A stretch of DNA of 47,998 nt, taken from positions 1-47,998 of the forward strand of contig JAKMAE010000001.1 of assembly GCA_022014875.1 (NCBI GenBank), read 5' to 3'. Below, piece by piece: positions 13,610 to 15,235 of this stretch; position 1 is the first letter of the stretch; every line of letters starts with the position of its first letter. The stretch is from Vulcanisaeta sp. (GTDB lineage Archaea; Thermoproteota; Thermoprotei; Thermoproteales; Thermocladiaceae). A program made the translations under genes and the position numbers. The notes under the pieces are model-generated. The model saw only the letters and a program-made list of their open reading frames with translations, did not search any database and was not told where the DNA came from.

Positions 13610-14461
13610 ATGCTTAGTGTAACGCAGGAGAGGAGTGTGATACCAAGGCTTAAGCAGGAAATTATGAGGAAAATGGTTGAGCAAGGCGTTAGGATCGATG
13701 GTAGGGGCTTGAATGATTATAGGAAGTTAATGATAAGGGTGAATGCGATAAAGACGGCGGATGGTAGCTCCATAGTGGCTCTCGGGAACACAAAGGTAAT
13801 AGCTGGCGTAAAGGTGGATGTTGGTAAGCCCTTCGAGGACACGCCAGACGAGGGCGCGCTAATCGTAAACCTGGAGATAGCCCCAACAGCATCCCCAGAC
13901 GTGGAGCCAGGACCGCCCGATGAGAATGCAATAGAGATTGCGAGGGTCGTCGATAGGGCAATAAGGCATAGCGGGTTTATAGACTTCAAGTCTTTATCCA
14001 TCGTCACGGGCAAACACGCCTGGTTCCTCTGGGTCGACATCTACGTAATAAACCATGATGGGAACCTCATCGATGCATCAACAATAGCTGCGGTGACCGC
14101 ATTAATGAACACAACACTGCCCAAGGTGGAGCTCGACCCAACGGGCAACATAATCAAAATTGACAGGAGCGTTAGGGCGCAGTTAACCACGAATCCCGAG
14201 AAATTACCATTGACGATAACCCACGTAAAGATGGGGAACGTATTACTTGTCGACCCCACACGCGAGGAGGAGGACCTATCGGATGGTATGTACGTTGTTG
14301 GCGTGGCTGGTGGTAATATCGTAGCGATACAGAAAGTCATCGGCGCATTTACTAGGGATGAGGTCAATTACGTAATCAACAACTCCGTCAATCAATACCT
14401 AAGGCTTAGGGATGCCGTGCTTAATGCCCTGAAGAACCCATCAACGGAACTAAGGCTGTGA
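13610..14461 (+). CDS. rrp42: Exosome non-catalytic ring subunit Rrp42
   Basis: RNase PH-fold structural partner of Rrp41, 283 aa. Characteristic segments are QGVRIDGRGLNDYRKL near the N-terminus, GSSIVALGNTKVIAGVKVD, and EGALIVNLEIAPTASPDVEPG. The acidic catalytic pair of Rrp41 is replaced (DPTREEEDLSDGMYVVG), as in other Rrp42 proteins. The N-terminal helical extension (VIPRLKQEIMRKMVEQ) is usual for archaeal Rrp42. It contributes to the RNA-binding face and stabilises the Rrp41 site. Confidence 0.97.
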   Translation: MLSVTQERSVIPRLKQEIMRKMVEQGVRIDGRGLNDYRKLMIRVNAIKTADGSSIVALGNTKVIAGVKVDVGKPFEDTPDEGALIVNLEIAPTASPDVEPGPPDENAIEIARVVDRAIRHSGFIDFKSLSIVTGKHAWFLWVDIYVINHDGNLIDASTIAAVTALMNTTLPKVELDPTGNIIKIDRSVRAQLTTNPEKLPLTITHVKMGNVLLVDPTREEEDLSDGMYVVGVAGGNIVAIQKVIGAFTRDEVNYVINNSVNQYLRLRDAVLNALKNPSTELRL

Positions 14462-14470
14462 GATCCGTAA

Positions 14471-14518
14471 TCAGCGGTCTCATCACGGAATCAGCGCTGC
14501 AGTACCCTCTTCACTGGG
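14471..14518 (-). ncRNA. Candidate C/D box small RNA
   Basis: On the minus strand the boxes occur in the canonical order: C GUGAAGA (14514-14508), a 13 nt guide-like stretch GGGUACUGCAGCG, D' CUGA (14494-14491), a 4 nt spacer UUCC, C' GUGAUGA (14486-14480), then CUGA (14474-14471). The C box differs from RUGAUGA at one position and the last CUGA follows C' after only 5 nt, so the second guide would be very short unless CGGA at 14467-14464 serves as D. A palindromic TATA at 14534-14541 is placed to start transcription near 14511. Target not identified. Confidence 0.4.
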
Positions 14519-14533: not shown

Positions 14534-14541
14534 TTAATTAA
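14534..14541. promoter_or_regulatory. Palindromic TATA element (nuclease-like gene and candidate sRNA)
   Basis: TTAATTAA, a perfect palindrome, is centred 26 nt upstream of ATG 14564 on the plus strand and about 23-26 nt upstream of the candidate C/D sRNA on the minus strand. Confidence 0.4.
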
Positions 14542-14563
14542 TAGGGCTTGCGCATTGCATGTA

Positions 14564-15235
14564 ATGTCCAATGTAGGCGTTAGGTTTGAGGATTACGCCG
14601 CAGAGTTGCTGAGCAGGCTTGGTTATAAGGTCCTCGGCAGGCGCGTTAAGGTTGTCATAAACGGCGTGGAGGTTGGCGAGGTCGACATAGTGGCCGAAGA
14701 CCCTGGGGGCGTTAAGTACGCGGTTGAGGTTAAGTCGGGCAAGGTCGATGTAAACGCGATAAGGCAGGCCTACGTAAATGCGAAGGTCCTCAATGCAAAG
14801 CCGCTAATCATAGCTAGGGGTTTTAGCAATGACTCAAGTAGGGCCCTGGCCGATGAATTAGGCGTCTCCGTAATTAACCTAGAGGAGGCGGTTGTATTAA
14901 CGGTTGATGAGTTGAGGACCGTCGTTGAGAACGTGATTTACGAGGCAATTGGCGATTTAATAAACACGGTCTTTACCTTAGCCGTGAAATCATGTAATGA
15001 GGGGGTCAGGGAAATCATGGAGGCTGTACTTCAATGCAACGACTGGGGCTGCGTGTGCTCCAAACTAGGTGTTGCAGGTGATGATTGCGGGAACTTCATA
15101 AATAACGTAAGGAAGGAGCTAGGTCTTGGTAACCTATCACTGAGCAAGTTAAGGACCGCGGTTCGGCTATACAACCTAGTGTCCCTGTTATTGAACCGCT
15201 GCAATGGGCAGGTAAGGGAAACGCTTAATAAATGA
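14564..15235 (+). CDS. PD-(D/E)XK (RecB/Mrr-like) nuclease-fold protein
   Basis: About 223 aa. The N-terminal 100 residues have the restriction-endonuclease fold: GVRFEDYAAELLSRLGYKV, a catalytic-type VGEVDIVAED (Glu-x-Asp), and YAVEVKSGKVD (ExK), followed by ARQAY-like IRQAYVNAKVLNAKPLIIARGF, all typical of archaeal RecB-like Holliday/repair nucleases. The C-terminal half is helical with several Cys (CNDWGCVCSKLGVAGDDC), which might be structural. ATG 14564 fits the promoter; TTG 14555 is three codons longer. Known archaeal relatives are uncharacterised; a role in DNA repair is inferred only from the fold. Confidence 0.82.
   Translation: MSNVGVRFEDYAAELLSRLGYKVLGRRVKVVINGVEVGEVDIVAEDPGGVKYAVEVKSGKVDVNAIRQAYVNAKVLNAKPLIIARGFSNDSSRALADELGVSVINLEEAVVLTVDELRTVVENVIYEAIGDLINTVFTLAVKSCNEGVREIMEAVLQCNDWGCVCSKLGVAGDDCGNFINNVRKELGLGNLSLSKLRTAVRLYNLVSLLLNRCNGQVRETLNK

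What the first reader, a model, noticed from the sequence alone, without database searches (positions are those of the whole stretch)
14471..14518. Candidate C/D box sRNA sharing a palindromic TATA with a nuclease-like gene
On the minus strand, GUGAAGA, 13 nt, CUGA, UUCC, GUGAUGA and CUGA occur in the C-D'-C'-D order of archaeal 2'-O-methylation guides. The palindrome TTAATTAA at 14534-14541 is spaced for a start just before the C box on one strand and for leaderless ATG 14564 on the other. The second guide is only 5 nt to CUGA (12 nt to CGGA), which is odd. One promoter serving a guide RNA and a nuclease gene in opposite directions would be notable.
Basis: partly seen in the sequence, partly recalled or inferred. 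Interest (0 to 1): 0.6.

Follow-up and report, generated by a model that had tools for sequence, protein, structure and literature searches.

The report
tRNA-Cys-targeting archaeal C/D guide RNA
A hot-spring archaeon carries a real, conserved small guide RNA gene that most likely directs a methyl mark onto the wobble base of the cysteine tRNA; it is a new member of a well-known kind, and the shared two-way promoter proposed for it is not established.

Summary
The boxes are really there and are far beyond chance. The C-D'-C'-D pattern occurs once in the window and in 0 of 100 shuffles. It is kept in 12 of 12 Vulcanisaeta genomes at the same place, between rrp42 and the Mrr/YraN-like gene, and four of five genomes of a sister genus carry it elsewhere. 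It is a C/D box sRNA on the minus strand, C box to D box 14464-14514.

Relatives show a 12-nt guide ending in an outer D box (CTGA in 10 of 12; CGGA here), so the inner CTGA is guide sequence.

The first (D') guide pairs with the anticodon arm of spliced tRNA-Cys(GCA). The N+5 nucleotide is G34, the wobble base, in every Vulcanisaeta genome where I found tRNA-Cys (9 of 12). The window's own tRNA-Cys is absent from its incomplete assembly; paired with a relative's, its guide forms 11 base pairs around one bulged A. The second guide's best partner is the tRNA-Tyr D arm (weak).

TTAATTAA is conserved, but its spacing fits the protein gene better than the sRNA. Expression and methylation are untested.

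The parts
14464..14514 (-). C/D box sRNA, C box to D box (51 nt); mature ends unknown, probably a few nt beyond on each side
   Evidence: unique pattern match, 0 of 100 shuffles; 12 of 12 syntenic copies; model R1 match E 7.8e-13 (this copy was in the training set)
14508..14514 (-). C box GUGAAGA (RUGAUGA in 9 of 12 genomes)
14495..14507 (-). D' guide GGGUACUGCAGCG; predicted target tRNA-Cys(GCA) anticodon arm, N+5 = G34, with one bulged A
   Evidence: relative's tRNA-Cys used; own not in assembly
14491..14494 (-). D' box CUGA (11 of 12 genomes)
14480..14486 (-). C' box GUGAUGA (RUGANGA in 12 of 12)
14468..14479 (-). D guide GACCGCUGAUUA, 12 nt (12 nt in 12 of 12); best partner tRNA-Tyr D arm, weak
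14464..14467 (-). D box CGGA (CUGA in 10 of 12, CAGA in the near relative G008)
14534..14541 (.). palindromic TATA-like TTAATTAA, conserved 12 of 12; more likely the promoter of the + strand gene
13610..14461 (+). rrp42 (exosome subunit), convergent; the sRNA D box ends 2 nt from its stop codon
   Evidence: NF003282 318.1 bits, cut-off 280
14564..15235 (+). Mrr_cat/UPF0102 (YraN-like) nuclease-fold gene, divergent from the sRNA
   Evidence: YraN NCBIfam models below cut-off, no PADLOC match

Best explanation
It is an archaeal C/D box 2'-O-methylation guide sRNA gene on the minus strand. The transcript would fold two k-turn-type motifs (C/D and C'/D'), bind L7Ae, Nop5 and fibrillarin, and present two guides. 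The D' guide pairs with the anticodon arm of spliced tRNA-Cys(GCA) and places the N+5 methylation on the wobble nucleotide G34. In 8 of the 9 Vulcanisaeta tRNA-Cys genes seen, an intron at the canonical 37/38 site interrupts the pairing region, so the guide should act after splicing. The D guide has no certain target; the best candidate is the D arm of tRNA-Tyr. Shown: the gene, its conservation, the complementarity and the register. Inferred: transcription, protein binding, methylation and its timing.
For: Box order unique in the window and in 0 of 100 shuffles. Kept in 12 of 12 Vulcanisaeta genomes at the same place, while the D'-C' spacer and flanks vary. In the sister genus 4 of 5 genomes have strong matches, three full length, not beside rrp42, with the same D' guide core and D-guide core. 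tRNA-Cys was found in 9 of 12 Vulcanisaeta genomes; the 7 genomes laid out give 10 Watson-Crick pairs (plus one G-U in 6), and G002 and G006 pair over all 12 nt including G-U. C-G at N+5 = G34 in all 9, and also in the 3 of 4 sister-genus genomes where tRNA-Cys was found. In G001, tRNA-Cys is the best site among 43 tRNA sequences plus 16S and 23S (25 of 2000 shuffled guides as good in tRNAs, 85 of 2000 in all). Window guide with G010 tRNA-Cys: -21.8 kcal/mol, 0 of 1000 shuffled guides as good; rival 16S site -9.6.
Against: The window's C box (GUGAAGA) and D box (CGGA) both depart from consensus; three genomes of genus g4 keep the inner CTGA but show no clear outer D box. The window's own tRNA-Cys, rRNAs and small-RNA data are not available. 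Its D' guide needs a bulge at 37/38. The tRNA-Cys arm is invariant in the genomes seen, so no compensatory change can be shown. In G001, G004-G007 the D' guide also matches a 16S site (9 pairs plus 2 G-U), and in G014 the two targets nearly tie (-15.7 and -15.3). No Rfam family reaches its cut-off (best sR14, 16.2 bits, cut-off 38).
Confidence: 0.82

Rival explanations
1. A C/D box sRNA whose main D' target is 16S rRNA (the AGCUGUAAACUA site), tRNA-Cys pairing being secondary.
For: 9 Watson-Crick plus 2 G-U pairs at one 16S column in 5 of 6 species with full rRNA.
Against: The window, G008 and G010 guides lose this site (-9.6, -9.3, -11.4 kcal/mol) but keep tRNA-Cys (-21.8, -17.9, -18.7); tRNA-Cys is stronger in all 12 guides tested, narrowly in G014 (two with a borrowed tRNA).
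Confidence: 0.08
2. One bidirectional promoter at TTAATTAA drives both the sRNA and the nuclease-like gene.
For: The palindrome is kept in 12 of 12 genomes, with AGGGYTTGCGC (one base shorter in G010) beside it in 11 of 12; centre to C box is 23.5-26.5 nt in 10 of 12.
Against: In G006 and G011 the distance to the C box is 40.5 and 36.5 nt; in most genomes the expected start falls at or inside the C box, leaving no leader. The + strand spacing (26.5-32.5 in 12 of 12) fits the protein gene. Only about 20% of archaeal C/D sRNA genes have their own TATA-like motif (PMC7994747).
Confidence: 0.2
3. The functional D box is the inner CTGA, so this lineage carries a half-broken guide with a vestigial 5-nt second guide.
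For: Inner CTGA is invariant in 12 of 12 and kept in g4, where the outer box is not evident; the outer box is CGGA here and CAGA in G008.
Against: Outer CTGA at exactly 12 nt in 10 of 12 Vulcanisaeta and in the 3 full-length sister-genus copies; bases next to the outer box vary while the box stays.
Confidence: 0.1
4. Chance box matches in an intergenic spacer, no RNA gene.
For: No transcript data; no Rfam match above cut-off.
Against: 0 of 100 shuffles and 12 of 12 conservation with variable spacers.
Confidence: 0.03

Closest known systems
[quoted passage not shown] Pyrobaculum families), as reviewed in PMC7994747
   Same: Box order, about 50 nt, 10-13 nt guides, N+5 on position 34 of one tRNA, second guide without a sure target
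   Different: Target is G34 of tRNA-Cys; host is Vulcanisaeta and its sister genus. The primary Pyrobaculum survey (Lui 2018) was not held, so a published homologue cannot be excluded
tRNA-Trp intron C/D guide (sR50 type; Cm34 and Um39)
   Same: Methylates the anticodon loop of a tRNA
   Different: This sRNA is a separate gene and not in the tRNA intron; the tRNA intron must be gone for full pairing
Rfam sR14 (RF01145) and sR1 (RF01152)
   Same: Same box layout; the alignment places the D box at CGGA too
   Different: Scores 16.2 and 11.0 bits against cut-offs of 38 and 45; not members

Membership tests
archaeal C/D box sRNA | C, D', C', D boxes in order with 10-13 nt guides | tested here: met
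   unique, 0 of 100 shuffles; 12 of 12
archaeal C/D box sRNA | consensus boxes RUGAUGA and CUGA | tested here: inconclusive
   D' and C' fit; C is GUGAAGA and D is CGGA in the window; RUGAUGA in 9 of 12 and CUGA in 10 of 12 genomes
archaeal C/D box sRNA | guide complementary to a stable RNA with the N+5 base paired | tested here: met
   tRNA-Cys G34 in 9 of 9 Vulcanisaeta genomes where the tRNA was found, 3 of 12 without a tRNA-Cys found; window by proxy tRNA only
archaeal C/D box sRNA | conservation in related species | tested here: met
archaeal C/D box sRNA | expressed as about 50-60 nt RNA bound by L7Ae, Nop5, fibrillarin | not testable with these tools
   no transcript or protein data
archaeal C/D box sRNA | genome encodes L7Ae, Nop5 and fibrillarin | not tested
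Rfam sR14 (RF01145) | score above gathering cut-off | tested here: not met
   16.2 bits, cut-off 38
intron-encoded tRNA guide | located in the target tRNA's intron | tested here: not met
   lies between rrp42 and the nuclease-like gene; ARAGORN finds no tRNA in the window

The most novel reading that the evidence does not exclude
A double tRNA guide: one sRNA marks G34 of spliced tRNA-Cys with its D' guide and a D-arm nucleotide (C13 by the N+5 count) of tRNA-Tyr with its D guide, coupling the modification of two tRNAs. The review PMC7994747 says tRNA-targeting sRNAs have one guide for the tRNA and another with no target.
Probability: 0.3. Interest if true: 0.5.

Novelty: new member of a known kind. 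Interest (0 to 1): 0.36.

Why it matters
It adds a conserved guide RNA gene in Vulcanisaeta that no Rfam family covers, and a testable prediction: 2'-O-methyl G34 in tRNA-Cys. Wolff 2020 (PMC7668247, passages) could not isolate the Sulfolobales tRNA-Cys, so this position is little studied in crenarchaea. The intron at the pairing site predicts an order: splice first, methylate after.

Tried and rejected
rRNA targets: no 23S site and no D-guide 16S/23S site pairs well across six species. The first hunt for the D' target by exact patterns found the sRNA copies themselves plus matches outside tRNA genes; it missed the tRNA because the intron splits it or because of the G-U at position 37. ARAGORN on 12 of those loci found no tRNA. 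In G002 the rrp42 frame is broken in the assembly, so the distance from D box to stop could not be computed there. Weak model matches outside the sister genus (g3, g4, other families) are partial and were used as leads only; for two of them (G031, G041) the guide pairs with tRNA-Cys with a mismatch at position 37. tRNA-Cys of G000, G008, G009 and G015, and tRNA-Tyr of G005, G008 and G009, were not found. No sigma-type promoter or terminator motif (the scan does not cover archaeal promoters). Papers: PMC7994747 (abstract, passages, one section), PMC4644070, PMC7668247, PMC6313347, PMC3491384 (passages). Lui 2018 and Bernick 2012 are not held; Tripp 2017 is known only through the review. No printed account of this sRNA was seen in the listings of searches, which cover only the open library.

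Full report
Context. The candidate lies on the minus strand between the exosome gene rrp42 (+ strand, ends 14461) and a Mrr_cat/UPF0102 gene (+ strand, ATG 14564).

Observation. A pattern for C-D'-C'-D with relaxed C and D boxes matches once on both strands of the window, at 14464-14514, and in none of 100 dinucleotide shuffles.

Conservation. rrp42 was found in 12 of 12 genomes of the genus. In all 12 an element with the same boxes lies just beyond the end of rrp42. C-to-D length is 49-52 nt. In the 11 genomes with an intact rrp42 frame, the D box ends 0-6 nt before the stop codon on the other strand. The nuclease-like gene follows in 12 of 12. Boxes: C is RTGATGA in 9 of 12; D' is CTGA in 11 of 12; C' is RTGANGA in 12 of 12; outer D is CTGA in 10 of 12, CGGA in the window and CAGA in G008. 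The second guide is exactly 12 nt in 12 of 12. So the inner CTGA, 5 nt after C', is best read as guide sequence. Against this: inner CTGA is itself invariant, and three g4 genomes keep it without a clear outer box. Two Rfam models also align the D box to CGGA, though far below cut-off.

Wider spread. A sequence model of the 12 copies was run on 45 genomes of the order. In sister genus g2, 4 of 5 genomes have strong matches (E 1.2e-10 to 2.9e-8), three full length, with D' guides TGGTTTGCAGCC/A or TAGTTTGCAGCG and the same D-guide core CCGCTGA. They are not beside rrp42 within the loci held, so the sRNA outlives its context. Matches in other genera are partial and weak.

Target of the D' guide. 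In nine Vulcanisaeta genomes tRNA-Cys(GCA) was found; its mature anticodon arm holds GGCUGCAGACC in all. Eight of the nine have an intron after position 37; G011 has none. The guide pairs with positions 30/31-40, and the base five upstream of D' pairs with G34. Pairing is 10 Watson-Crick plus one G-U in six of the seven genomes laid out, and 10 Watson-Crick in G010. G002 and G006 pair over all 12 positions. In G001 this is the best site among 43 tRNA sequences and both rRNAs; 25 of 2000 shuffled guides do as well in tRNAs and 85 of 2000 with rRNAs added, so one genome alone is modest evidence; the constant register is the stronger part. tRNA-Cys of three sister-genus genomes has the same arm. 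The window's tRNA-Cys was not found in its assembly. With G010's, the window guide pairs at 11 positions around one bulged A (-21.8 kcal/mol, 0 of 1000 shuffles). The tRNA arm does not vary, so no compensatory change can be claimed. The rival 16S site is weaker in all 12 guides tested, narrowly in G014, and is lost in the window's lineage.

Target of the D guide. The best partner in G001 is the tRNA-Tyr D arm (52 of 2000 shuffles as good in tRNAs, 140 of 2000 with rRNAs). In nine genomes where tRNA-Tyr was found, pairing is 8-10 Watson-Crick pairs, N+5 at C13. In G003 and G007 guide and tRNA both changed at the same pairing position without restoring the pair, while the guide has an extra pair at the other end. 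This is suggestive only.

Promoter. TTAATTAA is in 12 of 12, with AGGGYTTGCGC (one base shorter in G010) beside it in 11 of 12. Its centre is 26.5-32.5 nt from the nuclease-like start codon in 12 of 12, and 23.5-26.5 nt from the C box in 10 of 12, 36.5 and 40.5 in two. Box A sits about 26-27 nt upstream of transcription starts in N. equitans (PMC3491384, passages). The site therefore most likely serves the protein gene; the sRNA may use it weakly, or be processed from a longer transcript, as most archaeal C/D sRNAs are (PMC7994747).

Standing. The review PMC7994747 describes sRNAs that methylate position 34 of single tRNAs and notes that their other guide lacks a target. This is a new member of that kind. 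Expression, protein binding and methylation remain inferred.

Noticed in passing
window 14543-14553 and the same place in 11 of 12 Vulcanisaeta genomes: AGGGYTTGCGC (one base shorter in G010) is conserved between the TATA-like palindrome and the start codon of the nuclease-like gene; it may be an operator or promoter element.
   Followed up: partly
L250 and L252 (g3); L255 and L259: Partial C/D-like matches with D' guides that look complementary to tRNA-Tyr(GUA) loops (GGGTCTACAGCC, AGGTCTACAGCT) and tRNA-Trp(CCA) loops (TGGTCTGGAGCA, AAGTCTGGAGCG), suggesting sibling wobble guides; their tRNAs were not fetched.
   Followed up: no
window 14464-14514 and G008 copy: In the window's lineage the terminal C/D motif is degenerate while the inner C'/D' motif is canonical, the reverse of most relatives; possibly a permuted or circular form.
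   Followed up: no
L249, L253, L254 (genus g4): Homologues keep C', D' and the inner CTGA but show no clear outer D box or C box.
   Followed up: no
L021 (G002), L161 (G003), L163 (G002), L158 (G007): Frame breaks in rrp42 and odd tRNA 3' ends or G-runs in these draft genomes look like sequencing errors.
   Followed up: no
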